Source of the DNA: Reticulascus tulasneorum
Lineage: Eukaryota; Ascomycota; Sordariomycetes; Glomerellales; Reticulascaceae
Direction of reading: 5' to 3'
NCBI GenBank assembly: GCA_001557505.1
Contig: LSAX01000012.1
Coordinates: 310,001 to 374,000, forward strand
Length of the DNA: 64,000 nucleotides
Part shown: positions 1,209 through 25,400 of the stretch, piece after piece
How the letters are laid out: the number at the start of each line of letters is the position of its first letter
Position numbering within the stretch: the first letter of the stretch is position 1
The notes under the pieces: generated by a model
Databases searched by the model: none
What the model was told of the DNA's origin: nothing
Seen by the model: only the letters and a program-made list of their open reading frames with translations
Translations under genes and position numbers: made by a program

Positions 1209-4200
1209 ATGACGTCGGTAAGAAACATGGCAGCAGCTCAAGAAGACTTAGCTAGTTCAATACCCTTGATGTCTGTCGACACTGACAAGCAGCGCGAAAT
1301 TAACAAGCATCGCAACACTCTTCACAAGCAAGTAACTCGACGTTTTGGCTTGGACCCAGGTAAGATTGAGAATATCCTGCCAAGTACGCCGTTCCAAAGC
1401 GACGTGATGGATTATGCTGCGGGCGATGACCGGTATGTTGCTGGCTATGTCGTCTACCAGCTCCCAAAAAACGTCGACGTCGAACGCCTGGCCAAAGCTT
1501 GGAAGGAGGTTGTTCGTTGTACTCCGGCCTTGCGAAGTCACACATTCACGTCGGAATCCGGTGATCATTTTCAAGTCGTACTGTCGGAGAGCTTCTCTTG
1601 GATGTACTTGAAAAGTCAGGACACATACCAGGCCGTTGTCGAAGAAGAGGTCGCAGCTGTTCTGACTGGGGGTCAGTGCAATCGATTTGCCGTTCTAAAG
1701 AACCCAAGCACAGAGCAAACATTACTCATCTGGATATTTAACCAAGCTCTGGTGGATAGCACGTTCCAGGAACTCATTCTTCAAAGGGTACTTACGGTCT
1801 ACGACGGCGGGGAAATTAAAAACTCATCCGGGACCGAAATGCTGGCGAAGCCTCTGGTTAAGGATCCAGAAAGTGCGGCAAAGTTTTGGCAGGAGCACTT
1901 TGACGGATTAGATGCCTCTGCATTTCCTACTCTGCCGTCCCAGTTGACCAAGCCGTATCCCGATGCGAAGGCAGAGCATCGCATATCGTATCCGGTTTCG
2001 TCCCAGCAGAAGTGGGATAATACAATTATTTGCCGTGCAGCGCTCGCGGTTCTCCTTGCTCGATATACGCACGCCTCGGAAGCGCTCTTTGGCGTCGTAG
2101 TGGAGCGACCTCCATTGCTTAAGGGGCATGAACAGCCAATAGATGGCCCAACCCGAGTTGTCGTGCCTACCCGCGTACTTTGCGCTCCTCAGCAATCCGT
2201 ATCAGATCTAATGCAAGCGATCACCGCCCACGACACTGCTATGCGCGAGTTCGAACAGACAGGCATTCACGGCATTCGTCGTACGGGGGAGTTTGGGTCT
2301 GCGGCTTGTGAATTTCAAACTGTGCTAGTAGTCACTACTAGTGAAGTTCCACAAGCACCGCGTTCTAGACTTCATCAAGCTGTTGCAGGATCAGATAGAT
2401 TCATCCCATATACCGATCGTGCCCTTTTGATTAACTGTCAAATGGTCGATAACTCGGCGTTGCTGCTTGCACGATATGACCCTGGTGTGGTTGACGCCCC
2501 TCAAGTGGACCGCTTCCTGAGACAGCTAGGACACTTGATCAAGCATTTCCAAAGTCATTCGGTGGATCTGCCAGTACAAGAACTGGACATAATAACGCAA
2601 GAGGACCGAGCAGAGATCGAGAACTGGAACTCGAAACGACTTCGCACGAGCAAGGTCTGCATTCACGATATCATTGCCAAGAGGGCTGCTGATACGCCAC
2701 ATAAAACTGCGGTTGCTGCTTGGGATGGGGAATGGACATACGCCGAGCTGGACAGTTTGTCCTCGCGCCTCGCAGAGCATATTCAGCGCCTTGATTTAGG
2801 CCGCGTGCAAGCGATACCACTATGCTTCGAGAAGTCTAAATGGACTATCGCTGGAATGCTCGCTGTTCTTAAAGCGGGTCGGGCGTTCACACTCATTGAC
2901 CCGGCTAACCCTCCGGCCAGGATTGCCCAGATCTGTCGGCAAACCTCCGCGACAGTTGCTCTTACTTCCAAGCTCCATTGCAATACAATTTCTGCTATTG
3001 TGTCTCACTGCATTGTGGTCGACGACGAACTTTTGCAGTCACTATCGGGTACCAAACTTCGATTCACGCCTATCCGGAAACCACAAGATTTGGCGTACAT
3101 TCTCTTCACCTCAGGCAGCACAGGTGAGCCGAAAGGAAGTATGATCGAGCATCACGGATTTGCGTCGTGTGCACTCCAGTTTGGTACTGCACTTGGAATA
3201 AACGAACATACGCGAGCTCTTCAGTTCGCCTCGTACGCATTTGGCGCATGCCTGCTAGAAATCGTAGTTACCCTAATGCATGGAGGCTGCGTTTGTATTC
3301 CTTCCGAGGACGATCGTTTGAACAATATTCCAGGTTTTATCAACAGTAGCGGAGCAAACTGGGCGCTACTCACACCTTCGTTTATCGGAAGTATTCAGCC
3401 AGAAAGTATCCCTGGGCTTAAAACACTGATATTGGCTGGAGAACCGATGTCGGCAGAAATGAGAGATAACTGGGCCACCCGAGTTCAACTTTTGAACGGT
3501 TACGGTCAGAGCGAGAGCTCGACTATCTGCAGCGTTACCAAAGTCAACCTATCTACTGCCGAACCGAACAGCATCGGCCGCGCTGTAGGCGCCCGCTTCT
3601 GGATCACGGACCCTAACGAGCCCGATAAACTGGCACCTATCGGTTGTATTGGCGAGCTGGTGATTGAGAGTCCGGGAATTGCACGTGGATATGTCGTTAC
3701 TCCGCCGCAGGACAAGTCGCCATTCCTTGAAACAACCCCGGCTTGGTATCATCCGAGAGAGCCACTTGATACCTTCAAATTCTACAGAACCGGAGATCTC
3801 GTCTGTTATAGATCTGATGGTACCGTTGTGTACCTTGGGCGCAAAGACTCGCAGGTCAAGATTCGAGGGCAACGTGTAGAGATTGGTGATGTAGAAACAC
3901 ATTTACGACAGCAGCTTCCAAGTCACACGATACCCGTGGTCGAGGCTGTGAAAAGGTCGGACATGTCCAAAAGCATGATCTTGATTGCCTTTCTGATAGG
4001 ACCATTCCAGGACGACGAGGTCACTTCCCTTACTACATCGGCGGAGGATGCCTTCATCTTATCCAGTAGTGCTGCAATGTATATAAACACTAAGCTGCAG
4101 CAGATCGTCCCCCAGCATTCCATTCCATCCTACTATATTCGCATGCAGCACCTTCCAAGCACTGCGACTGGGAAAACAGATCGAAGAACTCTCCGATCCA

Positions 4201-4470
4201 TTGGCACCAAGCTACTAGGTGAAAAGATTCAGAGCAAACCATCTCAGCCGTTCAAGGAGATCCGCCGATCGGCCAATCCCGCAGACACACTACGTCAGGT
4301 TTGGTTTCGAAGCTTGAATCTGGATCCCAACTCCAACGTCCATAATGCCAACTTCTTCGAGCTGGGAGGAGACTCTATTGCAGCGATCAAAATGGTGAAC
4401 ATGGCCAGGGCACATGGAATCGCGTTGAATGTTACCGACATTGTCCAGAACCCAACGCTTACTGGCCTTG
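1209..4470 (+). other. NRPS module 1 (degenerate C1, A1, T1), predicted D-2-hydroxyisovalerate loading
   Basis: The N-terminal C-like domain (about 1360-2600) has lost the catalytic motif: FNQALVDS stands near 1740 where HHxxxDG belongs. A1 (about 2640-4215) has FTSGSTGEPKG and a pocket read as G235 A236 L239 L278 I299 A301 G322 I330 C331. Gly replaces the Asp that binds the alpha-amino group, as in hydroxy-acid-activating A1 domains of enniatin/beauvericin synthetases. The carrier has GGDSI (Ser codon 4374-4376), not the GGHSL of every other module. The whole block resembles enniatin synthetase module 1 rather than SimA module 1, which as I recall has a full C domain and Asp235. Predicted substrate is D-Hiv. 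Anthranilate-type A domains can also carry Gly235, so the substrate is inferred. Confidence 0.8.
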
Positions 4471-7400
4471 CAGCTACTATCCAGCGAGGGTCGACACCAC
4501 ACATTCCAATATCCTCGACGGAGTATCGAGGACCTGTCGAGCAGTCATTTGCTCAGGGTCGCCTGTGGTTCCTGGATCAACTGAATCTCGGTGCGACGTG
4601 GTACCTGCTACCGCTTGCCATGCGCTTATACGGCCCGCTCCATATCGATGCGCTTACGGCCGCACTACTAGCACTCGAGCAGCGTCATGAGACTCTACGG
4701 ACGACGTTTGAGGAGCGGGACGGCGTAGGCGTGCAAATCGTTCAGCCCAGTCAAACTACAAAGCTTAGAGTTGTCGATGTATCACATGGCAAGAACATCA
4801 CCTATACCCAGGTGCTGCAGCATGAGCAAACAACTCCTTTCGATCTAGCTTCTGAGCCTGGGTGGAGGGTGTGCTTGCTAAGAGTTGGAGACGATGACCA
4901 CGTTCTATCGATCGTCATGCACCATATCATCTCCGACGGCTGGTCTATCGATATTTTACGCAAGGAACTAGCCCAATTTTACACCGCCGCGCTCCAGGGC
5001 CAGGATCCTCTGTCACAGACCAGCCCGTTACCCATCCAATATCGCGACTTTGCTGTGTGGCAGAAGCAGAAGGATCAAGTGGCCGAGCACCAGCACCAGC
5101 TTGAGTACTGGACCAAACAACTCGAGGACAGCTCTCCAGCTGAGCTCCTGACCGATCTCCCCCGGCCAGCCATATTGTCTGGAGATGCCGGCGTCGTTCC
5201 GATCACCATCGAGGGGGCGGCGTACGAGAACCTCCGAGTATTCTGTCGCGCGCGTCAAGTAACGGCATTTGCTGTATTGCTCGCAGCTTTCCGTGCAGCA
5301 CACTACCGGCTAACCGGGGTCGAAGACGCGACCGTCGGAACACCGGCCGCTAATCGAAATCGGCCGGAGCTGGAAAACATGATCGGATTCTTCGTCAATA
5401 CCCAGTGCATGCGGATTATCATTGAAAACGACGACACATTCGACAGACTAGTTCAGCAGGTCTGGTCAACAGCAACAGCCGCGTTGGAGAACCAAGACGT
5501 CCCCTTCGAGCGTGTGGTATCAGCCATCCTGCCCGGGTCGAATGACAAGTCTCGAAACCCGCTGGTGCAACTCATGTTCGCTCTGCATTCCCAACAGGAC
5601 CTCGGCAAAATACACTTGCAGGGTCTTAGAGGCGAGTCTGTTCCATCAGCTGTGGTCACTCGGTTCGACATAGAGTTCCATCTCTTCCAGGATGTCGATA
5701 AGCTAAGTGGCAACGTGCTGTTCTCGACAGACTTGTTCGAGCCCGAGACAATCCGCGGCATGGTCGCTGTCTTTCAAGAAGTCCTACGCCGAGGCCTTGA
5801 GCAGCCTCAGACGCCGATCGTCACGCTGCCGCTCACGGACGGGGTGGCGGATCTTCGAAAGCTGGGGTTGCTTGAAATAGACAGGACTGAGTATCCGCGA
5901 GAGTCGAGCGTAGTTGATGTCTTCCGCGAGCAGGTGGCCGCTTATCCGGACGCAATAGCTGTCCTAGACTCGGCCTCGCAACTGACGTACTCTCAGCTGG
6001 ACCGAAAGTCCGACAAGATTGCTGCCTGGCTACGACGGCGAGTATTTCCAGCTGAGTTGCTCATCGGGGTGCTTGCACCTCGATCATGTGAAACAATTGT
6101 CGCCTTCATTGGCATCCTCAAAGCGAACCTAGCATATCTACCGCTTGATATCAACGTCCCGGCTGCCCGCCTCGAAGCAATCCTGTCGAGTGTTGCAGGA
6201 CATAAGCTGATCCTACTCGGCCCTGATGTGGCTGCTCCAGAAATGCAGCTGGCAGAAGTAGAGCTGGTGCGAATTGGCGACACCTTGAGACCTCATAGCA
6301 TTGATGGTGTTACTAACAGCGCCGTGCAACCTTCGGCCACAAGTCTTGCCTATGTCATCTTCACATCCGGATCAACTGGTAGGCCCAAAGGCGTTATGGT
6401 CGAGCACCGTGGCATTTTAAGACTTGTGAAGGAGAGCAACATTGTGTCCAAGCTGCCCAAGGCAGTAAGGATGGCACACTTATCCAATATCGCGTTTGAC
6501 GCCTCGATGTGGGAGACGTATACAGCGCTCCTGAATGGCGGGACACTGGTCTGTATCGATTATTTTACCACCTTAGACAGCAAAGCTCTCGAGGCTGTCT
6601 TCGCGCGTGAACAAATCCACGCGGCCTTGCTTGCGCCAGCGTTGCTCAAGCAATGTCTAGCCAACATACCTGCTACCCTTAGCGCGCTAGAAGTGCTATA
6701 CATAGGAGGAGATCGCTTGGAAAGTCGCGATGCGATTGAGGCGCGAGATCTTGTCAAGACCGTCTACAACGCGTATGGGCCTACGGAGAATTCAGTCATC
6801 AGTACAATCTACAGCATTGCTGAGCACGAGAACTTTGTCCACGGCGTTCCTATCGGACAGGCTGTAAGCAATTCTGGAGCTTTTATTACGGACCCTAATC
6901 AGCAACTTGTCTCTGCAGGCGTCATGGGCGAGCTTGTCGTCACCGGAGATGGGCTTGCTCGGGGCTACACGGACTCGGCCCTAGATCTGGACCGCTTCGT
7001 CCAGATAGTCACTGACGGTCAACTCATGAGGGCCTACCGGACGGGCGACCGGGTGCGATACAGGCCAAAAGACAGCCAGATCGAGTTCTTTGGCCGCATG
7101 GACCAGCAGATCAAGATCCGAGGCCATCGCATCGAGCCGGCCGAGGTGGAGCATGCTATACTCAGCCACGAAGGCGTCCTGGATGCCGCCGTGGTTATTC
7201 GGACGCAAGAGGATCAAGAGCCTGAAATTGTTGCTTTTGCCACCGCTCGGACTGACATGGTCATCGAGCAGGACGAGGCTAGCGGTCAGGTTGAAGGTTG
7301 GGAGAACCACTTTGAGATAAGCGCGTATGCAGATCTTAAAGCCATCGACCGGTCTGCAATTGGCAGCGACTTTATGGGTTGGACATCAATGTATGATGGG

Positions 7401-10400
7401 AGCGAGATTGATAAGGCCGAGATGCAGGAGTGGCTTGACGACACCATGCACGCCCTTCTCGATGGCCAGGCCCCTGGCCACGTACTCGAGATAGGAACAG
7501 GCACTGGTATGGTGCTGTTTAATCTAGGTGACGGCTTGCAAAGCTACATAGGCCTCGAACCGTCGAGATCCGCGGCCACATTCGTAACCAACACGGTGAA
7601 TTCTATTCCGTCTCTGTCAGGTAGGGCCAAAGTTCATGTTGGTACAGCGACCGACATCGATCAGTTGGAAGGCCTCCGTCCGGAGATCGTTGTGATCAAC
7701 TCGGTCGTCCAGTACTTTCCCACGCCGGAGTACTTGGTAGAAGTTGTGGATGCCCTGACTCAGATACCGGGTGTCAAGCGCCTGTTCTTTGGCGATATAC
7801 GATCTTACGCCATTAACAGGCAATTTCTCGCAGCTCGGGCCCTCTATACACTTGGGGGAAAGGCAACAAAAGAGGCTGTACGGCGAAAGATAGCAGAACT
7901 AGAAGAGCGTGAAGAGGAACTGCTAGTCGATCCAGCCTTCTTCACAGGGCTTGCAGGACAGATGCCAAATCGGATCAAGCATGTCGAAATCTTGCCGAAG
8001 ATGATGAGGGCCACCAACGAGCTTAGCGCATATCGGTATGCGGCTGTTATTCACATCAGGGGTCCGGAAGACTTGGCTGAGAATGTGATTAACGCTGATG
8101 CGTGGATCGACTTTGCAGCGTCAAAAATGGACCGCCACTCTCTGCTCCACATCTTGCAAAGCTCACCGGACTCTAAAGCCGTCGCTATCAGCAACATCCC
8201 CCATAGCAAGACGATTTTGGAGCGACATGTGGTCCAGTCGCTTGATGAAGATTGCGATGACGAAAGCTCGCTGGACGGCGCAGATTGGGCTACAGCTATC
8301 AACTCCATCGCTGAACGCTGCGCGTCGTTGTCTACGACAGATCTGGTACAACTTGGCAAAGAGGCAGGCTTCCGTGTGGAGCTCAGCTGGGCGCGTCAAT
8401 GGTCCCAGAAAGGCGCACTTGATGCTGTCTTCCACCGCTATCCGCAGAACAAAGTAGGATCTCGTGTCATGATCCAATTTCCGATAGACAAACACGACCA
8501 ACGACTCGGCCGCCTCACGAATAGGCCGCTTCAGCGGCTACAGAACCGCCGCATTGAGACTCAGATCCGCGAGCAGCTGCAAACCTTGCTCCCACCTTAC
8601 ATGATCCCGACGCGGATTGTGGTACTCGACCAGATGCCTCTTAATGCTAACGGCAAGGTAGACCGGAAGGAGCTTACTCGACAGGCTCAGATCGTACCAA
8701 AGACCAAGGTGGTCGCTACCCGCGTCGCCCCACGCAACGAGATAGAAGCCGTGCTATGTGAAGAGTTTGCGGACGTGCTCGGCGTTGAAATTGGCATCAC
8801 TGACAACTTCTTCGATCTCGGTGGACACTCCCTCATGGCCACGAAGCTTGCGGCCCGGATCAGCCGACGGTTAGATGCCCGTGTATCAGTCAAAGATGTC
8901 TTCGACCATCCCGTGCTCGCCGACCTGGCAGCTACCGTCCGTCGAGGCTCGACCCCGCACAGTCCCATAATCCCAACGCCGTATCGGGGACCTGTCGAGC
9001 AGTCGTTTGGTCAGGGTCGTCTGTGGTTCCTAGATCAGATGAACCTCGGTGCGACGTGGTATCTCATGCCGCTCGCGGTGCGAATTCGCGGGCCAGTCCA
9101 GACCGACGCGCTCGCCACCGCACTCCTGGCTCTGGAGCAGCGCCACGAGACACTGCGGACGACGTTTGAGGAGCGGGACGGCGTAGGCGTGCAAGTCGTT
9201 CAACCCCGTCGCGCTACAAAGCTCAGAGTTATTGATGTATCGCGCCGGGGGGACGGCGACTACGCCCAAATGTTGCAGCACGAGCAGACAACTCCTTTCG
9301 ACCTAGCTTCTGAGCCTGGGTGGAGGGTGTGTTTGCTACAGCTAGGAGATGATGATCATATTCTCTCTATCGTCCTGCATCATATCATCTCCGATGGCTG
9401 GTCCGTTGGTGTTTTGCGCCAGGAACTTGCCCAAGTATATGCTGCTGTCATCCGGGGCCAGGATCCTCTGTCGCAGGTTAGCCCACTCCCAATCCAGTAT
9501 CGCGACTTTGCTTTGTGGCAGAAGCAGGAGGATCAGGTGGCCGAACACCAGCGCCAGCTTGAGTATTGGACCAAGCAGCTCGAGGATAGCTCTCCCGCCG
9601 AGCTCCTGACCGATCTCCCTCGACCAGCTATAGTGTCTGGTGAGGCTGGCGTTGTCCCAGTAACTATAGAGGGACCAGTATATGAAAACCTCCGAGCGTT
9701 CTGTCGCACTCATCAGGTCACGTTGTTCGTCGTGCTGCTTGCGGCATTCCGCGCAGCGCACTACCGCCTCACAGGGGCCGAAGATGCGACTATCGGCACC
9801 CCTATCGCGAACCGTAATCGGCCGGAGCTTGAGAATCTGATCGGATTCTTTGTTAATACTCAATGCATGCGAATTACCGTTGGAGATGATGACACGTTCG
9901 ACGGACTTGTTCAGCAAGTCCGGTCGACAGTAACGGCTGCATTCGTAAATCAAGACGTCCCTTTCGAACGCCTCGTATCGACCCTCCTACCTGGGTCGAG
10001 GGATACGTCCCGTAACCCGCTGGTTCAGCTTATGTTTGCACTTCATCCACATCAGAATCTTACCAACTTCCAATTAGAGGGCTTAAGTGGGGAGCTTATG
10101 CCTACCGCCGTATCTACTAGATTCGATCTAGAGTTCCACCTTTACGAGAATTTGGGCAGTTTGAGTGGCAGTGTATTCTTTGCTTCAGACTTGTTCGAGC
10201 CGGAGACCATTCGCGGCATGGTCGCGGTCTTCCAAGAGGTCCTACGCCGGGGGCTTGAGCAGCCTCAGGCGCCGATCGCAACCCTACCGCTCACCGATGG
10301 AATTATAGATCTCCGCAGCATGGGTCTGCTTGAAATCGAGAGGACAGAGTATCCACGCGAGTCGAGCGTGGTTGACGTCTTCCACGAGCAGGTCGCGGCC

Positions 10401-13400
10401 ACTCCAGACGCAGTCGCCGTAATTGATACATCCTCGCAGCTTACCTACTCTCAGCTAGATCGGCAATCCGACGAGCTCGCTACCTGGCTACGCCGGCGGC
10501 ATATCCCTGCCGAAACACTAATTGGAGTGCTGGCGCCACGGTCGTGCCAGACAATCGTCGCTTTCCTCGGCGTCCTCAAGGCTAACCTAGCGTATATGCC
10601 GCTTGATTTCAATGTGCCCATGGCACGGATTGAGGCTATCCTCTCCGCCGTACCCGGCCACAAGCTGATCTTACTCGGCTCTGATATCCCTACTCCTGAG
10701 ACTCAGCTGTCAGATGTTGAGCTGGTACGGATTGACGACACTCTGGGCCGCCACCTTGCGCATGATTGTAAAGATGCGGCTGCGCAACCTTCAGCCACGA
10801 GTCTTGCATATGTTATATTTACGTCTGGGTCGACAGGAAAGCCGAAAGGCGTCATGGTCGAGCACCGTGGCATCTTACGGCTTGCGAAGAATAGTAGTAT
10901 TATTTCCAAGCTACCAAAGTCAGTGCGGATGGCACACTTATCCAATATCGCGTTTGACGCCTCGGTATGGGAGACGTATACAACGCTCCTGAATGGCGGG
11001 ACACTGGTCTGTATCGATTATTTTACCACCTTAGACAGCAAGGCTCTCGAGGCTGTCTTCGTGCGTGAACAAATCCACGCGGCCTTGCTTGCGCCAGCGT
11101 TGCTCAAGCAATGTCTAGCCAACATACCTGCTACTCTTAGCGCGCTAGAAGTGCTATACGTAGGAGGAGATCGCTTGGAAAGTCGCGATGCGATTGAGGC
11201 GCGAGATCTTGTCAAGACCGTCTACAACGCGTATGGGCCTACGGAGAATTCAGTCATCAGTACAATCTACAGCATTGCTGAGCACGAGAACTTTGTCCAC
11301 GGTATTCCAATCGGCCGAGCTGCCAGCAACTCTGGGGCTTATATCATGGACTCACATCAGCAGCTCGTCCCTGCAGGTGTCATGGGAGAGCTTGTCGTCA
11401 CTGGCGATGGGCTCGCCCGCGGCTATACTAACCAGGCCTTAGATCTGGACCGCTTCATCCAGATCTCCATCGACGGTCAGCTCGTGCGAGCATACCGGAC
11501 TGGCGATCGGGCACGGTACCGGCCAAAAGACGGCCAAATTGAGTTCTTCGGGCGTATTGACCAGCAATTCAAGATCCGAGGCCACCGTATCGAGCCGGCC
11601 GAGGTAGAACATGCCATGCTCAGCCATGAAGCAGTCTTTGATGCCGCGGTAGTCATCCGCGCGCAAGAAGATCAAGAGCCGGAAATGGTTGGTTTCGTCG
11701 CGACCCGGACTGACAAGTCCGCCGGGCAGGACGATACCAGCGGTCAAGTCGAAGGATGGGACAACCTACAGAGCCGTCAGATTGAGACTCAGATCCGCGA
11801 GCAGCTACGAGCCCTACTCCCACCATACATGGTTCCGACGCAGCTTGTGGTACTAGACCAGATGCCGCTTAATGCCAACGGTAAGGTTGACCGGAAGGAG
11901 CTTACTCGACGAGCCCAGATCGTATCAAAGACTGAGATAGTCTCCGCTCGCGTGGCCCCGCGTAATGAGATAGAAGCCGTGCTATGTGAAGAGTTTGCAG
12001 ACGTCCTTGGCGTTGAAATCGGCGTCACTGATAGCTTCTTTAATCTCGGCGGACACTCTCTTATGGCCACGAAACTTGCGGCCCGTATCAGCCGGCGGCT
12101 AGATGCACGTATATCTGTCAAAGATGTCTTCGACCATCCCGTGCTCGCCGACCTTGCAGCTACCATCCGGCGAGGCTCGACCCCGCACAGTGCAATCACT
12201 CCGATGACATATTGCGGACCTGTCGAGCAGTCGTTTGCTCAGGGTCGCCTATGGTTCCTGGACCAGTTTAACCTCGGTGCACCGTGGTATCTTATGCCAC
12301 TTGCGGTGCGCATTCGTGGGCCCGTCCAGACCGACGCGCTCGCTACCGCACTCCTGGCTCTGGAGCAGCGCCACGAGACTCTGCGGACGACGTTTGAGGA
12401 ACGCGACGGCGTTGGCGTGCAAGTCGTTCAGCCCAGTCCCGGTTCAAAGCTCAGAGTTATCGATGTTTCGCGCGAGCAGGACGGCGACTATACACAGTTG
12501 CTTCGGCACGAGCAGACAACTCCTTTCGATTTAGCGAATGAACCTGGGTGGAGGGTGTCCGTGCTACGGTTAGGAGAAGAAGATCACATCCTGTCGATCG
12601 TTATGCACCATATTGTCTCCGACGGCTGGTCTGTCGATATCTTGCGCCAGGAGCTAGGTCAATTCTATGCCTCGGCGCTCCGCGGCCAGGACCCTCTGTC
12701 GCACATCAGCCCACTGCCCATCCAGTACCGCGACTTTTCAGCATGGCAGAAGGAGGCAGATCAAGTGGCCGAGCACCAGCGCCAGCTTGAGTACTGGACT
12801 AAGCAGCTTGAAGACAGTTCTCCGGCCGAACTCCTCACCGACCTTCCTCGGCCAGCCATACTCTCCGGTCAGGCCGGCATGGTGCAGCTAACGATCGATG
12901 GGCCAATATATGAAAGCCTTCGATCGTTCTGCCGCGCTCATCAAGTGACGTCATTTGCTGTACTACTTGCGGCGTTCCGTGCAACCCACTACCGTCTTAC
13001 AGGAGCCGAAGACGCGACGATTGGTACCCCCATCGCCAATCGCAATCGGCCGGAGCTGGAGAACTTGATTGGCTTCTTCGTCAATACCCAATGCATGCGA
13101 ATCACCGTTGGAGACGACGACACATTCGACGGGCTGGTACAGCAGGTCCGGTCGACAGTAACGGCTGCGTTTACGAACCAAGACGTCTCCTTTGAACGTA
13201 TTGTATCAGCCCTCCTACCTGGATCGAGAGATACATCTCGAAACCCGCTAGTGCAGCTCATGTTTGCCGTCCACTCTCAACAAGACCTCGGCAAAATTCA
13301 GTTAGAAGGTCTGGTAGGCGAGCCTGTACCAATAGCTATATCTACTCGACTCGATGTGGAGTTCCACCTGTTCCAAGAGGTGGGAAGGCTGAGCGGCAAT

Positions 13401-16400
13401 GTGCTCTTTGCTACAGACCTATTTGAGCCAGAAACCATCAACGGAATGGTTGCGGTATTCCAGGAGGTCCTACGCCGAGCCCTTGAGCAGCCTCAGACTC
13501 CGATTGCAACCTTGCCGCTTACAGATGGGATTACAGACCTCCGCATCAATGGCCTCCTTAAAATCGAGAGAACAGACTATCCGCGCGAATCGAGCGTTGT
13601 AGATGTTTTCCGTGAGCAGGTGGCTGCCTCTCCAGATGCGACAGCGGTCATAGATTCATCCTCGCAGCTGACGTTCTCTCAGCTGGATGAGCAGTCTGAC
13701 GAGCTGGCTGCCTGGCTGAAGATGCGGAATATTCATGCCGAAACACTAATCGGGGTGCTGGCGCCACGGTCGTGCCAGACTATCATCGCCTTCCTCGGCG
13801 TTCTCAAGGCAAATTTAGCATACCTACCGCTCGACGTCAACGTTCCCGCGGCTCGTATTGAAGCGATCTTATCTGCAGTTCCCGGCCACAAGCTGGTGTT
13901 GCTTGGTTCTGATGTAGCTGTTCCAAAATTTCAGTTACAAGGTGTGGAAATAGTGCGGATTGGCGACACTCTTGGTCACTGTGGTCCAGATAACCGTTTG
14001 AATATCTCTCTGCAGCCTTTGGCCACAAGCCTTGCATATGTCATCTTCACGTCTGGGTCCACGGGAAAGCCCAAGGGCGTCATGGTCGAGCACCGTGGGA
14101 TCCTTCGCCTTGTGAAGAAGAGCAACGCTGTGTCCAGGCTCCCACCATCAGCTGCCGTGGCTCATCTGTCTAATATTGCATTTGACGCGGCTACGTGGGA
14201 GATATATGCGCCGCTGCTAAATGGCGGCACGGTGGTCTGCATCGACTATTTCACCACCTTAGACAGTAAAGCACTCGAGGTTGTCTTTACGCGGGAACGA
14301 ATCCGCGCGACCATGCTCCCCCCGGCATTACTAAAGCAGTGTCTGGCTAACATGCCTGCTACGCTTAGTGGCCTCGACATTCTGTTCGTCGCTGGCGATC
14401 GGTTCGATAGTCGCGACGCGATCAGGGCGCAAGCACTTGTCCCAAATGGCGTCTATAATGCGTATGGCCCTACTGAAAATACAATTCTGAGTACTATTTA
14501 CAATGTTGGGGAGGATGAAGTATTTGCCAATGGTGTTCCCATCGGCCGGGCTGTTAGCAACTCTGGGGCCTATATTATGGATCCTCATCAGCAGCTTGTC
14601 CCTGCCGGCGTCATGGGCGAGCTTGTAGTCACCGGAGACGGACTGGCCCGTGGATATACCAATCCGACGTTAGACCGCGATCGCTTTATTCAGACCGCCA
14701 TCGATGGTCAGCTCGTGAGGGCATATCGGACTGGCGATCGAGTACGCTACCGACCGAAAGACGGCCAGATCGAGTTCTTTGGGCGAATGGACCAGCAGAT
14801 CAAGATCCGAGGCCACCGCATTGAACCGGCGGAGGTAGAGCATGCTATGCTCAGCCACGCCGTAGTGCGGGATGCCGCAGTTGTTATCCGAAAACAAGAG
14901 GATCAGGAACCAGTGATGGTTGGCTTCGTCGCGACCCGCGCTGACGGGTCTATTGGGCAGGACGAGGCTGACAACCAGGTCGAAGGGTGGGGCAACCACT
15001 TTGAGACAAGCACGTATGCGGATATTACGGCTATCGACCAGTCTGTAATTGGCAACGACTTTATGGGTTGGACATCGATGTATGACGGTAACGAGATCGA
15101 CAAGACAGAAATGCAGGAGTGGCTTGACGACACCATGCGCACCCTTCTCGATGGCCAAGCCCCTGGCCACGTGTTCGAAATAGGCACCGGAACCGGAATG
15201 GTCCTGTTCAATCTAGGTGAGGGCCTGCAAAGCTACGTAGGCCTCGATCCGTCGAGATCCGCCGCCGCCTTCGTTAACAGGATGGTCAAGTCCATCCCGG
15301 CCCTAGCTGGTAGGGCCAAAGTGCACGTCGGAACGGCGACAGATATAAATCTACTAGATGGACTTCGCCCTGATCTAGTAGTGATAAATTCTGTTGCCCA
15401 GTACTTCCCTACGCCAGAGTACTTGGTAGATGTCGTCAAGGCTCTCACTCGGATCCCTGGCGTGAAGCGCTTGTTCTTTGGCGATATGCGGTCTTACGCG
15501 ATTAACAGGGATTTCCTCGCCGCCAGGGCTTTACGCATATTAGGTGACAAGGCAAGTAGAGCTGAGATCCGACGAAAAATGGCAGAACTGGCAGAGCGTG
15601 AAGAGGAGCTATTGGTTGATCCAGCTTTCTTTACGAGCTTAACAAGGCAGTTGCCAGATCAAATTAAGCATGTTGAGATATTGCCAAAGAGAATGAGAGC
15701 CACCAACGAACTCAGTGCGTATAGATACGCAGCCGTCATACATATCCGCAGTCCAGACGAGCAGGAGCAGCCGGTATACGGGATTGAATCTGAGGCCTGG
15801 GTTGATTTTGGAGCGTCAAAGATGGATCGTCAGGCTCTTCTCCACCTCTTGCAACACTCGCCAGATGCCCCGACTACTGCTATCAGTAACATTCCTTATA
15901 GCAAGACTATATTAGAGCGACATCTTGTCGAGTCGCTAGATGTTGACGATGACACTCAGGATTTGCTAGACGGAGCGGCCTGGGTCTCAGCAGTCCGCCG
16001 CACCGCGGATCAGAGTAAGTCGCTATCAGCGAGCGACCTTATGCAACTGGGCAAGGAAACAGGCTTTCACGTGGAGATCAGCTGGGCACGACAATGGTCT
16101 CAGAATGGTGCACTGGATGCCGTCTTCCACCGTTATTCGCCCCCTAAAGAAGGGACCCGTGTTATGATCCGGTTCCCAACTGACCATGAAGGTCGACTGG
16201 AAGATAGACTCACGAACAGGCCGCTACAGCGGCTTCAGAGCCGCCGCATTGAGACGCAGATCCGCGAGCAGCTGCAAACCTTGCTTCCACCTTATATGAT
16301 CCCGACACGGATTGTGGTGCTCGACCAGATGCCTCTTAACACGAATGGTAAGGTCGATCGAAAAGAGCTAGTTCGACAGGCCCAGATCGTACCCAAGACC

Positions 16401-19400
16401 GAGGTGGTCGCCACCCGCGTGGCCCCACGCAACGAGATAGAAGCCGTGCTGTGTGAAGAGTTTGCGGATGTACTCGGCGTCGAAGTTGGCACTACTGACA
16501 ACTTCTTCGATCTCGGCGGGCATTCCTTGATGGCTACAAAGCTGGCGGCGCGAATCAGCCGGCGGCTGGATGCCCGTGTCTCAGTCAAAGACGTCTTCGA
16601 CCATCCCGTCCTCGCCGACCTTGCAGCTATCATCCGGAGAGGTTCAACCCCGCACAGTCCCATCCCCCCGACGCCATATCGGGGACCTATTGAGCAGTCA
16701 TTTGCCCAGGGCCGCCTATGGTTCCTGGACCAGCTGAATCTAGGTGCGACGTGGTATATCATGCCGCTCGCCGTACGCATGCGAGGGCCACTTCACATCG
16801 ATGCGCTCACTACTGTGATTTTAGCTCTGGAACAGCGCCACGAGACTCTGCGGACGACGTTTGAAGAGCGAGATGGCATGGGCGTACAAGTCATTCGGCC
16901 TACCAGCACTAAAGAGCTTAGAGTGATTGATATATCGGGAGGGCGGGACGGCAGCTATATCGAGCCACTTCACCAAGAGCAGACGAGCCCTTTTGATCTA
17001 ACGTCTGAGCCGGGGTGGAGGGTGTCGTTACTACGGCTAGGAGAAGAAGATCACATTCTATCTATCGTCATGCACCATATTATCTCTGATGGCTGGTCTG
17101 TCGATATCTTACGCCAAGAAATAGGTCAATTTTATGCGGCGGCGCTCCGCGGCCAGGACCCTCTGTCACACATTAGCCCACTCCCAATCCAGTATCGCGA
17201 CTTTGCTTTGTGGCAGAAACAGGAGGACCAGGTGGCGGAGCACCAGCGCCAGCTCGAGTATTGGACTGAACAACTCGAGGACAGCTCCCCGGCTGAGCTC
17301 CTGACCGATCTCCCTCGGCCAGCCATACTATCTGGAGAGGCTGGCATCATCCCGATCACCATCGATGGATCTGTGTATGAAAACCTCCGAGCGTTCTGTC
17401 GCACTCATCAAGTAACGTCTTTTTCCGTGCTACTGGCGGCATTCCGTGCAACCCACTATCGTCTCACTGGGGCTGAAGATGCGACGATCGGCACCCCCAT
17501 CGCTAACCGCAATCGGCCAGAGCTCGAGCACTTAATTGGCTTCTTCGTCAATACCCAATGCATGCGGATTGCTGTTGGCGGTGAAGACACATTTGAGGGT
17601 CTGGTTCAGCAGGTCCGGTCAACAGCGTCGGCCGCGTTTGCAAACCAGGATGTCCCTTTCGAACGTATTGTGTCAACCCTCCTACCTGGATTAAATGATA
17701 CGTCTCGGAACCCGCTAGTACAACTGATTTTTGCTGTCCACTCTCAACAGGATCTTGGCAAGATTGAGTTGGAAGGCCTAGTTGGCGAACCTGTTTCAAC
17801 AGCCGTAACAACTCGGTTTGATGTAGAGTTCCACCTATTCCAACAAGTAGGGAAGCTGAGTGGCAACGTACTATTCGCAAAAGATCTATTCGACCAAGAG
17901 ACTATCCGCAGCATGGTTGCTGTTTTCTACGAGATTCTTCGCCGAGGCCTTGAGCAGCCTCAGACCCCGATTGCAACTCTGCCGCTTACTGACGGACTAG
18001 CTCAGCTTCGCAGTACGAGTTTACTGAAGATTAAGAAGACTGACTATTCTCGCGATTGGAGTGTAGTCGACGCTTTCCGTGACCAGGTGGCCACTTGTCC
18101 CGAGGCGATCGCTGTGATTGACGCGTCTTTACAGCTGACATATGCTCAGCTGGACCGGCAATCCGACGAGCTTGCTGCCTGGTTGCGACGGCGGCACCTT
18201 CCCGCCGAGACCCTGATCGGAGTACTGGCGCCACGGTCATGCCAGACAATTGTCGCCTTCCTCGGCATCCTCAAGGCAAATCTAGCGTATCTACCACTCG
18301 ACGTCAACGTGCCCACGGCTCGCATCGAAGTAATCTTGTCGGCAGTGTCAGGACAGAAGCTGGTACTACTCGGTCATGACGTGCCTATTCCAGAGGCTCG
18401 CCTGCATGACACTGAGCTAGTGCGCATTGGCGACACTCTTGGCAATAACTATGGTCTAGGTGATCCTGCAGACATCTTAATAGAGCCTTCGGCCACAAGC
18501 CTTGCATATGTCATCTTCACTTCCGGTTCAACAGGCAGGCCAAAAGGTGTCATGATCGAGCATCGCAGTATTGTACGGCTTGTGAAGCCAAGCAATGTCG
18601 TATCTAAGTTGGTAAGGGGAGCGCGAATGGCACACTTGGCTAATATTGCCTTTGATGCCTCAATATGGGAGATCTCTACGGCGCTTCTAAACGGCGGAAC
18701 GCTCGTCTGTATTGACTACCATACTATCTTGGATAGTAAAGCTCTTGAGGCTGTATTCTCCCGGGAGCAGATCCGCGTTGCCACGCTTCTGCCAGCATTA
18801 CTCAAGCAGTGTTTGGTCAACATTCCTGATACGATTGGTGCTTTAGACGTCCTATACACAGGCGGAGATAGAGTGGACAGTTGGGTTGCGATCAAGGCGC
18901 GTGCCCTTGTCCAATCTGGCATGTATAGCGGGTACGGTCCCACGGAGAACACGGTTATCAGTACAATCCACAACATTGCTGAGAACGAGTCTTTTGTCAA
19001 CGGCGTGCCTATAGGCCAGGCTGTAAGCAATTCTGGAGCCTTCATCATGGATCCCAGTCAGCAGCTTGTTCCTATCGGCGTTATGGGCGAGCTTGTCGTC
19101 ACCGGAGACGGGCTCGCTCGAGGGTACACCGATCCAGCATTAGACCGCGATCGCTTTATCCAGGTTGCCATTGAGGGTCAACTCGTGCGGGCCTACCGGA
19201 CCGGCGACCGTGTACGCTACCGACCGAAAGACAGTCTGATCGAATTTTTCGGACGTATGGACCAGCAGATCAAAATCCGAAACCATCGCATCGAACCGGC
19301 CGAGGTAGAGCATGCTATGCTCAGTCATGATGCAGTTCTTGATGCCGCCGTCGTGATTTGGAAGGAAGACGACAAGGAGCCAGAAATGGTCGGTTTCGTT

Positions 19401-22400
19401 GCAGCGCACGCCGACAAGTCCACCGAGCAGGACGAGGCCAGTAACCAAGTCGAAGGGTGGGAGAACCACTTTGAGACGAGCGCGTATGCAGACATCCAGG
19501 CCATCGACCGGTCTGCTATCGGGAGTGACTTCATGGGCTGGACCTCAATGTACGATGGGAGCGAGATCGACAAGGCCGAGATGCAGGAGTGGCTTAAAGA
19601 TACAATGCACACGCTCCTAGATGGTCAGGCGCCAGGCCACGTACTGGAAATAGGCACCGGCACCGGCATGATCTTGTTCAATCTAGGCAAAAGCCCAGGG
19701 CTAAAAAGCTACGTCGGCATCGAACCGTCGAGGTCAGCGGCCAAATTCGTCACAGACGCGATCAAGTCCGTCCCGGCTCTAGCAGGTATGGCCAAAGTCC
19801 ACGTCGGTACGGCGACCGATATAGGCCGTTTAGACGGGCTGCGTCCGGATCTTGTCGTGATCAACTCTGTGGCTCAATATTTCCCGACGCAAGAATATAT
19901 AATTGAGGTTGTTGATACACTTACTCGAATCCCAGGCGTTAAGCGCTTGTTTTTCGGCGATATTCGGTCTTACGCCACAAACAGGCACTTTCTTGCCACT
20001 AGTATTCTACGTGTGCTTGGTAGAAAGGTGACTAAAGACCGAGTTCGGCAGAAGATGGCGGAAATGGAAGAACGTGAAGAGGAAATGCTTGTCGATCCAG
20101 CTTTCTTTACAGGCCTAACAAAAAGGTTGCCTGGGCAAGTCAAACACGTCGAGATTCTACCGAAGACAATGAGAGCAATCAATGAGCTTAGCGCGTACCG
20201 TTATGCGGCCGTTATACATGTCCGCAGTGCAGAGGACCCGGTACAGCAGGTACATACGATTGATGAGGATGCCTGGATCGACTTCGCATCGTCGAAGATG
20301 GACCGCCACACTCTCGTCCGCCTCCTACAGAGCTCTTCAGACTCTCAAAACGTCGCCATCAGCAACATTCCCTATGACAAGACTATTGTAGAGAGGTATA
20401 TGGTCGAGTCACTCGATAACGATACCGATGGCGGAGACGACGCAGAAAGTACGCTAGATGGTGCGGCCTGGGTGTCAGCTGTCCGTTCTAAGGCCGAAAA
20501 TTGCGCATCTTTGTCCGCAGTCGATCTCATGCAGCTTGGCGAACAGGCAGGCTTCCGTGTAGAGGTCAGCTGGGCACGACAATGGTCCCAAAAGGGCGGG
20601 CTCGATGCCGTATTTCACCATTATTCGCCTCCCAGAGAAGGGTCCCGTGTTATGATCCGATTCCCGACTGACGATGAGGGCCGACCAGTGAGCAGTCTCA
20701 CGAGCCGGCCGCTGCAGCGAGTACAAAGCCGTCGGATCGAGACGCAGATTCGCGAGCAGCTGCAAGCTTTACTCCCACCTTACATGGTCCCGGCGCGGAT
20801 TGTGGTGCTAGACCAGATGCCGCTTAACGCGAACGGCAAAGTTGACCGGAAGAAGCTGGCCCAAAAAGCGAAGACGGTGCCGAAAAGCAAGTCAGCTGCC
20901 GCACGAGTGGCACCACGTAACGAGATAGAAGCCGCGCTTTGTGAGGAGTTCGCGGATGTTCTCGGCGTCGAGGTTGGTATCACTGATAGCTTCTTCGATC
21001 TCGGCGGACATTCCCTCATGGCGACGAAGCTAGCGGCGCGCATCAGTCGGCGGCTGGATGCCCGCGTATCGATCAAAGACGTCTTCGACCAGCCGGTAAT
21101 CCTCGATCTCGCAGCAACAATCCAGCGAGGCTCGATTCCACATAATCCGATCCCCTCTACCGCATACAGCGGACCTGTCGAGCAGTCGTTTGCCCAAGGC
21201 CGTCTATGGTTCCTGGACCAGCTGAACCTCGGCGCGACTTGGTATCTCATGCCGCTCGCCGTGCACATTCGCGGGCCGCTCCTAGTCGATGCGCTCAATT
21301 CTGCGCTGCTGGCTCTGGAGCAGCGCCACGAGACTCTGCGGACAACATTTGAGGAGCGGGACGGTGTTGGCGTGCAAGTCATTGGGCCCTGCCGCTCAAA
21401 GGAGCTTAGAGTGATCGATGTATCAGACAAGCAGAATGAGAGCCTCCTACAGCCCTTACACCAAGAACAGACAACCCCATTCGATCTGGCTTTGGAGCCA
21501 GGATGGAGGGTATCGCTGCTACGGCTAGGAGATGATAATCACGTCCTCTCTATAGTCATGCATCATATCATCTATGACGGCTGGTCCATCGACGTCTTGC
21601 GTCAGGAGCTAGCCAAATTCTATGCTTCCGCCATGCGGGGCCAGGATCCTCTGTCGCAGGTTAGCCCACTCCCAATCCAGTATCGCGACTTTGCTTTGTG
21701 GCAGAAGCAGGAGGATCAAGTGGCCGAACACCAGCGCCAGCTTGAGTATTGGACCCAGCAGCTCGAGGACAGCTCTCCCGCTGAACTTCTGACTGATCTA
21801 CCTCGGCCAACCATTTTGTCTGGTGAGGCAGGTTTCGTCCCAGTCACCATCGATGGATCGCTGTATGAGAGCCTCCGAGTGTTCTGTCGCACTCATCAGG
21901 TCACCTCGTTTGCCGTGCTGCTCGCGGCATTCCGCGCAGCTCACTACCGTCTCACTGGAGCTGAAGATGCCACTGTCGGTACACCAATCGCCAACCGCAA
22001 TCGGCCGGAGCTCGAGAACTTGATCGGCTGCTTCGTTAATACCCAGTGTATTCGCATCAACATTGGAGCTGACGATACATTTGACGGACTGGTACGGCAG
22101 GTCCGGTCGACAACGACTGCCGCGTTTGCGAATCAAGACGTCCCATTCGAGCGTATTGTGTCAGCCCTGCTACCTGGGTCGAGAGACACGTCCCGGAACC
22201 CGCTAGTGCAACTCATGTTTGCCGTCCACTCTGAACAGGACCTCGGAAAGATCCAGTTGGAAGGCCTAGAAGGGGAGCTTTTACTGACATCTGCATCGAC
22301 GCGATTCGATGTAGAGATCCACTTAGTCCCAGAGGAGGGGAGGCTAAGCGGCAGTATGCTCTTTGCTACAGATCTATTCGAGCCTGAGACAATTAGCAGT

Positions 22401-25400
22401 GTGGTAGCCGTCTTCCTAGAGGTCTTACGCCGGGGTCTTGAGCAGCCTCAGACGCCGATTGCAATGCTGCCGCTCACCGATGGACTAGCAGATCTTCGCA
22501 GCATGGGCCTGCTGGAAATCGAGAGAACAGACTATCCACGCGAGTCGAGCGTGGTTGACGTCTTCCGCGAGCAGGTCGCGGCCACTCCGGATGTGACTGC
22601 TGTAATTGACACGTACTCGCGACTTACCTACTCTGAGCTGGATCAGCAATCGGACCAGCTTGCTACCTGGCTGCGACGACGTCATATCCCTGCCGAAACA
22701 CTGATCGGAGTGCTAGCACCGCGCTCGTGCCAGACAATCGTCGCCTTCCTCGGTATCCTGAAGGCGAACCTGGCGTATCTACCCCTCGATGTCAATGTGC
22801 CCACGGCCCGTATTGAGGCAATCCTATCTGCCGTACCTGGCCACAAGCTGGTCTTACTCGGTTCTGACGTCCCTGATCCGGAGGTTCAGCTGCCAGACGT
22901 TGAACTGCTACAGATCGATGACACTCTGGTGGGGCCTCATGGCAACGACGATGCTACTTATGGCAACATTCGACCTTCAGCGACAAGCCTTGCGTATGTC
23001 ATGTTTACATCTGGGTCAACCGGTAGGCCTAAGGGTGTCATGGTAGAGCATCGTGGCATCATGCGGCTCGTAAAGGACACAGATGTTATCTCGAGCACCC
23101 AAGCAGCAGTCCCAGTAGCCCACATAGCGAATCTTGCCTTCGACGCGGCGACGTGGGAGATATACACTGCACTTCTGAATGGCGGATCTTTAATATGCAT
23201 TGATCACACTTCGGTCCTGGATGTCTCTTCTCTCGGCCAGATATTTCAGCGAGAGATGATTCGGGCTGCCATGTTCACGCCGGCCTTCCTGAAGCAATGC
23301 ATCGCCGAGTCTCCTGAGATAATTAGTGGACTAGAGGCTCTCTACGCCTCGGGTGATCGTTTAGACGCCCATGACGCCATATCAGCGCTAAAGCTGACAA
23401 GGGGAGGAATTATCAATGCATGCGGTCATACGGAAAACAGCGTTTTCAGCACGCTTTACCGTATGCAAGAAGGGGAGCGCTGTATCAATGGGGTCCCCGT
23501 CGGCCACGCTATTAGCAACTCAGGAGCATATGTTATGGACACTCAGCAGCGCATAGTGCCACTCGGGGCAATGGGTGAGCTGGTCTTAACTGGAGACGGG
23601 GTGGCTCGAGGATACACCGACCCTGCACTGGACCGGGACCGTTTCATCCAGGTCACCATCGACGGTCAGCTTGTGAAGGCATACCGAACCGGGGATCGTG
23701 TGAGATACCGGCCGAAAGACGGCCAGATCGAGTTCTTTGGGCGCATGGACCAGCAAATCAAGATCCGAGGCAACCGCATCGAGCCAGCGGAGGTGGAGCA
23801 TGCCATGCTTAGTCACGATGCAGTCCGCGATGCCGCAGTCGTCATCCGGAAGCAAGAGGGCCAAGAACTAGAAATGGTTGGCTTTGTTGCGACCCATGTC
23901 GATAAATCCCTCAAGCAGAATGGGGCCGTTGCCAGCAATGCCAATCATCCAGAAAGTCAGGACGAGCAATACACAAGACAGACAGAGAAGGAGGTCCGAA
24001 AACGGCTACAGACCTTGCTCCCTCCTTACATGGTCCCGACACGTATCGTGGTGTTAGACCAGATGCCTGTCAATGCCAACGGCAAGGTTGACCGGAAGGA
24101 ACTCACCCGAATGGCCCAGACTGTATCAAAGACTGAGATACTCTCCGCCCGAGTGGCCCCGCGTAATGAGATAGAAGCCATATTATGTGAAGAGTTTGTA
24201 GACGTCCTTGGTGTTGAGGTCGGTATTACTGACAGCTTCTTCGACCTCGGCGGACATTCTCTCATGGCCACAAAGCTGGCGGCGCGTATCAGCCGGCGGC
24301 TGGATGCCCGCGTCTCTGTCAAAGAAGTCTTCGACCATCCCATCCTCGCGGACCTAGCCGCTATCATCCGACGAGGCTCGACCCCACACAGTCCAATCAC
24401 TCCGAAAACGTATCGCGGACCTGTCGAGCAGTCGTTTGCCCAAGGCCGTCTATGGTTCCTAGATCAGTTGAACCTTGGTGCGACGTGGTATCTTATGCCT
24501 CTCGCGGTGCGTATGCGCGGGTCCCTACAAATCGACGCGCTCGCTACCGCGCTCCTAGCTCTAGAGCAGCGCCACGAGACGCTGCGGACGACGTTTGAGG
24601 AACAGGATGGCATAGGGGTGCAAGTTGTTCAGCCATGCCGCACTACAGAGCTTAGAGTTATCGACTTATCAGCCGAAAAAGATTGTAATTACCTCCAACC
24701 GCTACAACAAGAGCAGGCAACTCCGTTCGACTTGGCGTCTGAGCCTGGGTGGAGAGTGTCGCTACTAAGACTTGGAGTAGATGATCACATCCTCTCCATA
24801 GTCATGCACCACATAATATCCGACGGCTGGTCTATTGGCGTGTTACACCAAGAGCTGGGCCAACTCTACGCTGCCGCAGTCCGGGGCCAAGACCCTCTGT
24901 CCCACGTTAGCCCACTCCCAATCCAGTATCGCGACTTTGCCGTGTGGCAGAAGGAGGCCGAGCAGGTTGCTGAACATCAGCGACAGCTCGAGTACTGGAC
25001 CAAACAACTCGAGGACAGCTCTCCAGCTGAACTCCTTACTGACCGACCACGGCCAGCTATACTGTCAGGCGAAGCCGGCGTCGTCCCGATCATCATCGAG
25101 GGACCTATATATGAGAGCCTTAGAGCGTTCTGTCGAACTCATCAGGTGACATCTTTTGCCGTGCTGCTTGCGGCATTCCGCGCAGCGCACTATCGTCTCA
25201 CTGGAGCTTCAGACGCGACGATCGGAACTCCCATTGCCAATCGTAATCGACCGGAGCTCGAGAACTTGATCGGATTCTTCGTTAATACGCAGTGCATGAG
25301 GATTACCGTTGGTCATGACGATACATTTGACAGCTTAGTGCAACAGGTCCGGTCGACGGTGACGGCCGCGTTTGCGAATCAAGACGTCCCCTTCGAACGT

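What the first reader, a model, noticed from the sequence alone, without database searches (positions are those of the whole stretch)
1209..4480. Chimeric synthetase: depsipeptide-synthetase module 1 fused to a cyclosporin-synthetase body
Seen: module 1 differs from modules 2-11 in every respect (inactive C1 with FNQALVDS, Gly235 pocket, GGDSI carrier, different A-domain style with ASYAFGACLLE and CVCIPSEDD). The block reads like the N-terminus of enniatin/beauvericin synthetases as I recall them (for example WTYAELD, IDPANPPAR, GYGQSESS). Right after the carrier motif, around QNPTLTGL at nt 4448-4470, the text switches to AATIQRGSTPH, the inter-module linker of the cyclosporin body. SimA, by contrast, starts with a canonical C domain and an Asp235 A domain for D-Ala. 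This is a natural first-module swap with a visible crossover inside T1.
Basis: partly seen in the sequence, partly recalled or inferred. Interest (0 to 1): 0.95.

Follow-up and report, generated by a model that had tools for sequence, protein, structure and literature searches.

The report
Cyclosporin-type synthetase with hydroxy-acid starter
A giant fungal enzyme built like the one that makes the drug cyclosporin, but starting with the hydroxy-acid module of bassianolide-type enzymes, probably makes an ester-containing cyclosporin relative (a peptolide), and the same kind of starting module heads several other giant enzymes on the same chromosome piece.

Summary
Module 1 of this 14,846-aa, 11-module synthetase is of the enniatin/bassianolide first-module type (67-68% identical to two Xylariales synthetases; A1 pocket GALLIAGTI), and the match pattern switches at aa ~1084 (nt ~4458). 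The 'first-module swap' reading is only partly supported: the switch lies at the same place in 9 of 9 other starter-headed synthetases measured, six other large frames on this contig carry the same starter, and Xylariales bassianolide-type enzymes are the nearest relatives on both sides of the junction. The fusion looks old and shared. The body agrees with published SimA traits: A2/A3/A8/A10 and A4/A9 group together, methyltransferases sit in modules 2,4,5,7,8,10, and a Bmt-type PKS, P450 and aminotransferase follow. Module 3 has an in-frame scar where its methyltransferase was lost. A ketoisovalerate-reductase-like gene lies 2 kb upstream; no SimB-type racemase hit lies on the contig. Best explanation: a D-hydroxyisovalerate-primed cyclosporin-type peptolide synthetase, matching the structure I recall for SDZ 214-103, whose enzyme was purified in 1993 and whose gene I did not find in print. 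No product data.

The parts
1209..45749 (+). 11-module synthetase (SYN), 14,846 aa, one open frame
1314..2618 (+). C1, starter condensation-like domain, catalytic motif FNQALVDS lacks both His (likely no condensation activity)
   Evidence: BEAS/BSLS C1 shown inactive in PMC5457498 section 7
2721..3923 (+). A1 core, pocket GALLIAGTI (Gly235), predicted D-2-hydroxyisovalerate
4251..4463 (+). T1, carrier with GGDSI
4461..4529 (+). T1-C2 linker, where matching changes from starter-like to internal-junction-like
4530..5843 (+). C2, first elongation condensation domain
7287..8540 (+). N-methyltransferase stretch of module 2
11745..11792 (+). module 3 scar: left and right edges of an N-methyltransferase joined in frame (QVEGWDN/LQSRQIETQ)
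   Evidence: present in 1 of 22 non-methylating elongation modules examined
14976..16235 (+). N-methyltransferase stretch of module 4
19446..20723 (+). N-methyltransferase stretch of module 5 (predicted Bmt module)
27177..28448 (+). N-methyltransferase stretch of module 7 (predicted Gly to Sar)
31653..32915 (+). N-methyltransferase stretch of module 8
39369..40643 (+). N-methyltransferase stretch of module 10
44424..45359 (+). terminal condensation-like domain (CT), predicted to close the ring as an ester
46909..55515 (+). highly reducing polyketide synthase in several frames, KS-AT-DH-MT-(ER)-KR-ACP, SimG-like domain order (Bmt)
   Evidence: SimG order in PMC6168864 section 10
56770..58137 (-). 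cytochrome P450 (SimI-like role); only the frame 56770-57387 was scanned against Pfam
59833..60777 (+). class IV (branched-chain type) aminotransferase (SimJ-like role)
61360..62346 (-). thioesterase / alpha-beta hydrolase

Best explanation
This is a cyclosporin-type synthetase that starts with a hydroxy acid instead of D-alanine, that is, a cyclosporin-like peptolide synthetase. SHOWN by sequence: starter C1-A1-T1 of the bassianolide type, ten elongation modules, methyltransferases in modules 2,4,5,7,8,10, a methyltransferase loss scar in module 3, a CT-like end, a PKS/P450/aminotransferase set behind it and a ketoisovalerate-reductase-like gene in front of it. INFERRED: the reductase makes D-2-hydroxyisovalerate (D-Hiv); A1 loads it on T1; C1 does not condense; C2 makes the first amide; modules 2-11 add MeLeu, Leu, MeVal, MeBmt, Thr (or Abu), Sar, MeLeu, Leu (or Val), MeLeu, Ala; CT closes the ring by an ester between Ala and the D-Hiv hydroxyl. 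That order equals the structure I recall for peptolide SDZ 214-103, [Thr2, Leu5, D-Hiv8, Leu10]-cyclosporin. The starter-body fusion is old and shared with bassianolide-type synthetases; relative to SimA, it is more likely SimA's D-Ala start that is derived (inference, SimA sequence not seen).
For: Module 1: 67-68% identity to Xylariales synthetases named bassianolide synthetase or alike; A1 clade with P0200/P0220 and the 24,626-aa paralog 95/98; all four have a GALL pocket. Reductase: the one PF08546 hit on C4 is C4:308656-309048, of 5 genome-wide; its two coding blocks (C4:307962-309093, 2.1 kb before the synthetase start) are 66% and 69% identical to the reductase domain fused to P0220. PF01212 (SimB/threonine-aldolase family, family name recalled): 4 matches, none on C4. 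Body: A2/A3/A8/A10 one group (95/91) and A4/A9 sisters (81/69), the same groups that Bushley et al. report for SimA Leu and Val modules. Methyltransferase pattern differs from SimA's by module 3 only; 11 of 1024 patterns lie that close, and module 3 keeps both methyltransferase edges with 7 aa between the marker motifs instead of 417-425. Length: about 45.8 kb for simA against 44.5 kb here, a gap of about one methyltransferase. A9 groups with Val-type A4 but has the Leu-type residues G301 and V330. PKS domain order as SimG, plus P450 and aminotransferase. Controls: the three paralogs read in full have 14, 10 and 10 A domains and other methyltransferase patterns.
Against: No SimA, FR901459-synthetase or ESYN1/BEAS sequence was available to the tools (no listed hit exceeds 8,000 aa), so orthology of modules 2-11 to SimA rests on published groupings. 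A4/A9 support is weak, and holding A9 with the Leu group is not rejected (p-AU 0.074), so residue 5 may be Val or Leu. Raw identity of C2 is highest to the 13,015- and 13,783-aa paralogs (79%, 78%), not to P0200 (75%), and SYN C2-C11 alone as a clade is not rejected (p-AU 0.145). The C1 tree does not resolve. The reductase reads in two blocks with a break of about 60 bases; intron or frameshift was not settled. SDZ 214-103's structure is recalled; I found only a reference title in a held paper. A passage of PMC6168864 assigns N-methylation domains to modules 1, 6 and 9 of SimA, which conflicts with its own next sentence and with PMC3688495; I used the latter. No expression or product data.
Confidence: 0.8

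Rival explanations
1. Recent first-module swap: a cyclosporin synthetase received module 1 from a bassianolide-type gene by recombination at the T1 edge in this lineage.
For: Sharp change of match at aa ~1084; different starter from SimA by the literature; the linker right after T1 is nearer to SYN's own internal linkers than to most other starters' linkers.
Against: Same change at the same place in 9 of 9 other starter-headed synthetases measured; nearest relatives agree on both sides; same starter in six other frames of the contig; GC3 pattern shared with paralogs.
Confidence: 0.2
2. Growth from a bassianolide-like two-module enzyme: a starter plus one methylating module multiplied its second module to ten inside this lineage, and resemblance to SimA is partly convergent.
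For: P0200/P0220 C2 falls within the SYN C2-C11 group in both trees; C domains of each synthetase cluster by enzyme; aureobasidin synthetase is published as such an expansion.
Against: Module-wise A groups and the methyltransferase pattern coincide with SimA's, and the Bmt gene set is beside it; repeat homogenisation would also make C domains cluster by enzyme.
Confidence: 0.2
3. The starter loads another D-hydroxy acid (for example lactate or 2-hydroxy-3-methylvalerate), giving a peptolide other than SDZ 214-103.
For: Hydroxy-acid starters vary among the paralogs (GAVF..., AAVF... pockets); KK-1's first module is assigned to D-lactate.
Against: GALL pocket shared with P0200/P0220 and a reductase like the one fused to P0220 next door.
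Confidence: 0.2
4. The locus is silent or no longer functional.
For: A broken starter-type A remnant lies at its right side and more remnants on the contig; reductase in two blocks.
Against: 44.5 kb open frame without a stop, intact motifs in all 11 modules.
Confidence: 0.1

Closest known systems
Bassianolide-type synthetases of Xylariales (P0220, Xylaria sp. BCC 1067; P0200, Monosporascus sp. MG133)
   Same: Starter C1-A1-T1 (67-68%), GALL pocket, C2/A2/MT2 70-75% identical, CT 59-66%, a ketoisovalerate-reductase-like domain
   Different: Two modules with two tandem terminal T domains and a fused reductase, against 11 modules, one T at the end and a separate upstream reductase gene
Cyclosporin synthetase SimA, Tolypocladium inflatum
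   Same: 11 modules, A-domain groups A2/A3/A8/A10 and A4/A9, methylation pattern except module 3, CT end, PKS/P450/aminotransferase set
   Different: Hydroxy-acid starter, reductase instead of alanine racemase, module 3 methyltransferase lost; sequence of SimA itself not compared
Peptolide SDZ 214-103 synthetase (Lawen and Traber 1993; seen only as a reference title)
   Same: As recalled: cyclosporin-like peptolide with D-Hiv at 8, Leu (not MeLeu) at 10, Thr at 2, Leu at 5; fits starter, module 3 scar, A6 and A9
   Different: No gene or protein sequence found in the held papers; producer of this genome unknown
KK-1 synthetase Kk1B, Curvularia clavata (PMC10512319, passages)
   Same: Long non-iterative synthetase (10 modules, 13,041 aa) with a hydroxy-acid first module and interspersed N-methylation
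   Different: D-lactate start with D-lactate dehydrogenase, 10 residues, other composition
FR901459 (Stachybotrys chartarum cyclosporin; PMC9144806, passages)
   Same: Leu instead of Val at position 5, as the A9 pocket suggests
   Different: Described as a cyclosporin; its synthetase was not examined here

Membership tests
Enniatin/beauvericin/bassianolide-type starter module | C1-A1-T1 in the starter clade apart from elongation domains | tested here: met
   A trees, starters one clade, FastTree 1.0; 67-68% identity
Enniatin/beauvericin/bassianolide-type starter module | Asp235 replaced in A1 | tested here: met
   Gly235, GALLIAGTI
Enniatin/beauvericin/bassianolide-type starter module | ketoisovalerate reductase supplied with the cluster | tested here: met
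   C4:307962-309093, 66-69% to the P0220 domain; activity not tested
Iterative cyclooligomer synthetase (BEAS/BSLS architecture) | C1-A1-T1-C2-A2-MT-T2a-T2b-C3, two modules used repeatedly | tested here: not met
   11 modules, single terminal T
Cyclosporin synthetase (SimA type) | 11 modules with terminal CT domain | tested here: met
Cyclosporin synthetase (SimA type) | Leu modules 2,3,8,10 and Val modules 4,9 grouping in the A tree | tested here: met
   95/91 for the first group, 81/69 (weak) for the second; published pattern
Cyclosporin synthetase (SimA type) | N-methylation in modules 2,3,4,5,7,8,10 | tested here: not met
   module 3 lacks it, with a loss scar; other six met
Cyclosporin synthetase (SimA type) | D-Ala first module with alanine racemase in the cluster | tested here: not met
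   hydroxy-acid type A1; no PF01212 match on C4
Cyclosporin synthetase (SimA type) | Bmt genes: PKS, P450, aminotransferase | tested here: met
   Pfam and domain order; pathway from PMC6168864
Cyclosporin synthetase (SimA type) | module-by-module sequence orthology to SimA | not testable with these tools
   SimA not among the listed hits; no listed hit above 8,000 aa
SDZ 214-103 peptolide synthetase | hydroxy-acid start and no N-methylation at module 3 | tested here: met
   target structure recalled
SDZ 214-103 peptolide synthetase | Thr at module 6 and Leu at module 9 | tested here: inconclusive
   A6 DAWFYSAVF; A9 DAWLLGAVL, Leu-like pocket on a Val-type branch
SDZ 214-103 peptolide synthetase | product made | not testable with these tools
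   needs culture and mass spectrometry

The most novel reading that the evidence does not exclude
This is the gene of an SDZ 214-103-type peptolide synthetase, and the hydroxy-acid start is the older state: cyclosporin's D-Ala module and racemase were the later replacement. The enzyme belongs to a family of at least seven starter-headed giant frames near one telomere that diversify by module number, by starter pocket and by clean in-frame excision of methyltransferase domains, so nature has marked where such modules and domains can be exchanged or removed.
Probability: 0.35. Interest if true: 0.85.

Novelty: new variant of a known kind. Interest (0 to 1): 0.7.

Why it matters
If right, it gives the gene and cluster of a cyclosporin-like peptolide whose enzyme was purified in 1993 but for which I found no sequence in the held papers. 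It makes the starter change between cyclosporin and peptolide testable by sequence, shows a naturally tolerated, precise methyltransferase excision (useful to synthetase engineers), and shows seven related starter-headed giant frames on one subtelomeric contig as a natural experiment in assembly-line growth.

Tried and rejected
Tried and led nowhere: protein searches for SimA (none of the 120 listed hits of either call exceeds 8,000 aa, so SimA at about 15,300 aa could not appear); sequence search of solved structures (mostly bacterial NRPS entries, no cyclosporin or enniatin synthetase among the listed chains); look-up of the Amphichorda cyclosporin C paper (not held); a structure source for SDZ 214-103 (none found). 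Considered and rejected: module 1 as foreign DNA by composition (its lower GC3 is shared by the three paralogs read in full); the T1 edge as a crossover special to this gene; C1 tree as evidence either way (unresolved, p-AU 0.31 and 0.10). My identification of residues 235-331 is by alignment to motif positions recalled for PheA, not by a structure alignment. Rows dropped: the 22,758-aa starter (piece too short) and internal junctions without the QSF/QSY motif; the elongation C domains of the other synthetases were sampled (30 rows used; the fuller set is); P0245 was left out; the C1 motif of three rows (17,604, 22,758, P0249) was not read because the pattern missed it.
Full report
What was checked. 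The window is G000:C4:310001-374000 of a 42.8-Mb genome in 35 contigs. The synthetase is one open frame, window 1209-45749, 14,846 aa. Domain calls by phmmer with seeds from the protein itself give C1-A1-T1, ten elongation modules, and a terminal condensation-like domain.

Module 1. Residues 1-1075 are 68% identical over 99% to P0200 (Monosporascus sp. MG133) and 67% over 97% to P0220 (named bassianolide synthetase, Xylaria sp. BCC 1067). The A1 pocket is GALLIAGTI; P0200 and the 24,626-aa paralog read GALLVAGSI, P0220 GALLVVGTI; the other starters read on this contig have GAVF or AAVF types. All starter A domains form one clade (FastTree 1.0), and SYN, the 24,626-aa paralog, P0200 and P0220 form one clade within it (95/98). 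The C1 motif is NQALVDS in SYN; six of the eight other starters whose motif was read keep SHALVD, one has SYALVD and one SNALMD. In beauvericin and bassianolide synthetases C1 was shown to have no condensation activity yet to be needed for expression (PMC5457498, section 7 read; further passages).

The junction. In 12-residue windows SYN module 1 is starter-like up to aa ~1084 and then equally close to starters and internal junctions. The same switch, between aa 1071 and 1087 in SYN numbering, is found in 9 of 9 other starter-headed synthetases measured: four paralogs on C4, P0200, P0220, P0242 (Clonostachys solani), P0243 and P0249 (Myriangium duriaei). Directly behind T1, SYN's linker is closer to its own internal linkers (mean 0.63) than to starters' linkers (0.48) in one window, so some local exchange with internal modules is possible.

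Head and body point to the same relatives. In a tree of 30 sampled elongation C domains SYN C2-C11 and the C2 of P0200/P0220 form one group (SH-aLRT 98) without the other paralogs' bodies; the fuller FastTree agrees in outline. Against this, SYN C2 alone is most identical to the 13,015- and 13,783-aa paralogs (79%, 78%; P0200 75%), and SYN C2-C11 as a clade of its own is not rejected (p-AU 0.145). The 24,626-aa paralog shares SYN's A1 type but its C2-C4 group with other paralogs, so heads and bodies have mixed among paralogs or the D-Hiv-type pocket is the older one. C1 trees do not resolve.

The paralogs. C1 finds six other large frames on C4 at 63-65% identity over nearly the whole domain, and broken remnants; the next matches elsewhere are at 23-30% identity (one remnant each at 52%, 67% and 71% are on C4). 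Three of them were read in full: 14, 10 and 10 A domains. The contig starts with telomere repeats (12 CCCTAA units).

The body. Methyltransferase motifs lie in modules 2,4,5,7,8,10. Bushley et al. report for SimA A2/A3/A8/A10 (Leu) and A4/A9 (Val) as groups (section read); SYN shows A2/A3/A8/A10 (95/91) and A4/A9 (81/69). Pockets: A2, A3, A10 identical (DAWLYGAVI), A8 DAWLFGAVM, A4 DAWLFAAIL, A9 DAWLLGAVL, A5 DAWLYGGVI, A6 DAWFYSAVF, A7 DIQLFVAIQ, A11 DVWLFAAIL. Module 3 has QVEGWDN directly followed by LQSRQIETQ: the left and right edges of a methyltransferase 7 residues apart, where the six methylating modules have 417-425. Of 22 non-methylating elongation modules examined (4 in SYN, 8, 5, 3 and 2 in four paralogs) it is the only one with this scar. 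So module 3 was a methylating module, as in SimA, and lost the domain in frame by about 410 codons.

The surroundings. Behind the synthetase lie a highly reducing PKS with KS, AT, DH, methyltransferase, Zn-dehydrogenase, KR and ACP matches, a P450, a class IV aminotransferase and a thioesterase; SimG, SimI and SimJ make Bmt in T. inflatum (PMC6168864, passages and section 10). In front, at C4:307962-309093, are two blocks 69% and 66% identical to the reductase domain fused to P0220; it is the only PF08546 match on C4, of five in the genome. B. bassiana has kivr beside bbBeas (PMC10512319, passages). PF01212 gives four matches, none on C4. P0200 and P0242 gene models end at the same point where the reductase here breaks, which suggests an intron missed by annotation, not proven.

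Reading. A D-Hiv-primed, cyclosporin-type peptolide synthetase explains starter, reductase, missing racemase, module number, methylation pattern with its scar, A-domain groups and the Bmt genes together. The order fits the structure that I recall for SDZ 214-103. The enzyme's purification is known to me from a reference title (Lawen and Traber 1993); six paper searches found no gene for it, which covers open-licence papers only.

Polarity. Because the starter-body fusion is shared by enzymes of at least three fungal groups and described for enniatin, beauvericin and bassianolide synthetases, I infer that the hydroxy-acid start is older than SimA's D-Ala start. This needs SimA's sequence, which the tools did not offer.

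Noticed in passing
G000:C4:17809-563700 (outside and around the window): Eight giant open frames with condensation domains (17604, 13015, 13783, 7600, 3565, 14902, 22758, 24626 aa), seven of them starter-headed; the 24,626-aa frame shows at least 16 elongation C domains in the capped list. I recall fungal NRPSs of about 21,000 aa as the largest; not checked.
   Followed up: partly
G000:C4:639125-667189 and 693553-724932: Two further giant NRPS frames of another type (10,248 and 11,406 aa) on the same contig.
   Followed up: no
window 63141-63911: Degenerate remnant of a starter-type A domain, 32% identical to SYN A1 residues 644-905; more starter remnants at C4:6516-7720, 12532-12804, 775944-776321, 812934-813143.
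   Followed up: partly
G000:C4:222440-255562: The 3,565-aa and 7,600-aa frames are neighbours on one strand and only the first has a starter; possibly one gene in two frames. Described only.
   Followed up: no
P0200, P0220, P0242, P0243 C-terminal ends: A ketoisovalerate/ketopantoate-reductase-like domain is fused to the end of these synthetases (Pfam PF02558 listed for all four), while here it is a separate gene upstream.
   Followed up: partly
G000:C4:1-80: Telomere-type CCCTAA repeats at the contig start, so the NRPS island is subtelomeric.
   Followed up: no
window 19400-27200 (module 6) and the 17,604-aa paralog: SYN A6 groups with A8 of the 17,604-aa paralog (100/100), apart from the other SYN A domains, so module 6 may have got its A domain from a paralog.
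   Followed up: no
L036 5725-7998 (C4:379725-381998): Right of the cluster a frame with many tandem TPR-like repeats.
   Followed up: no
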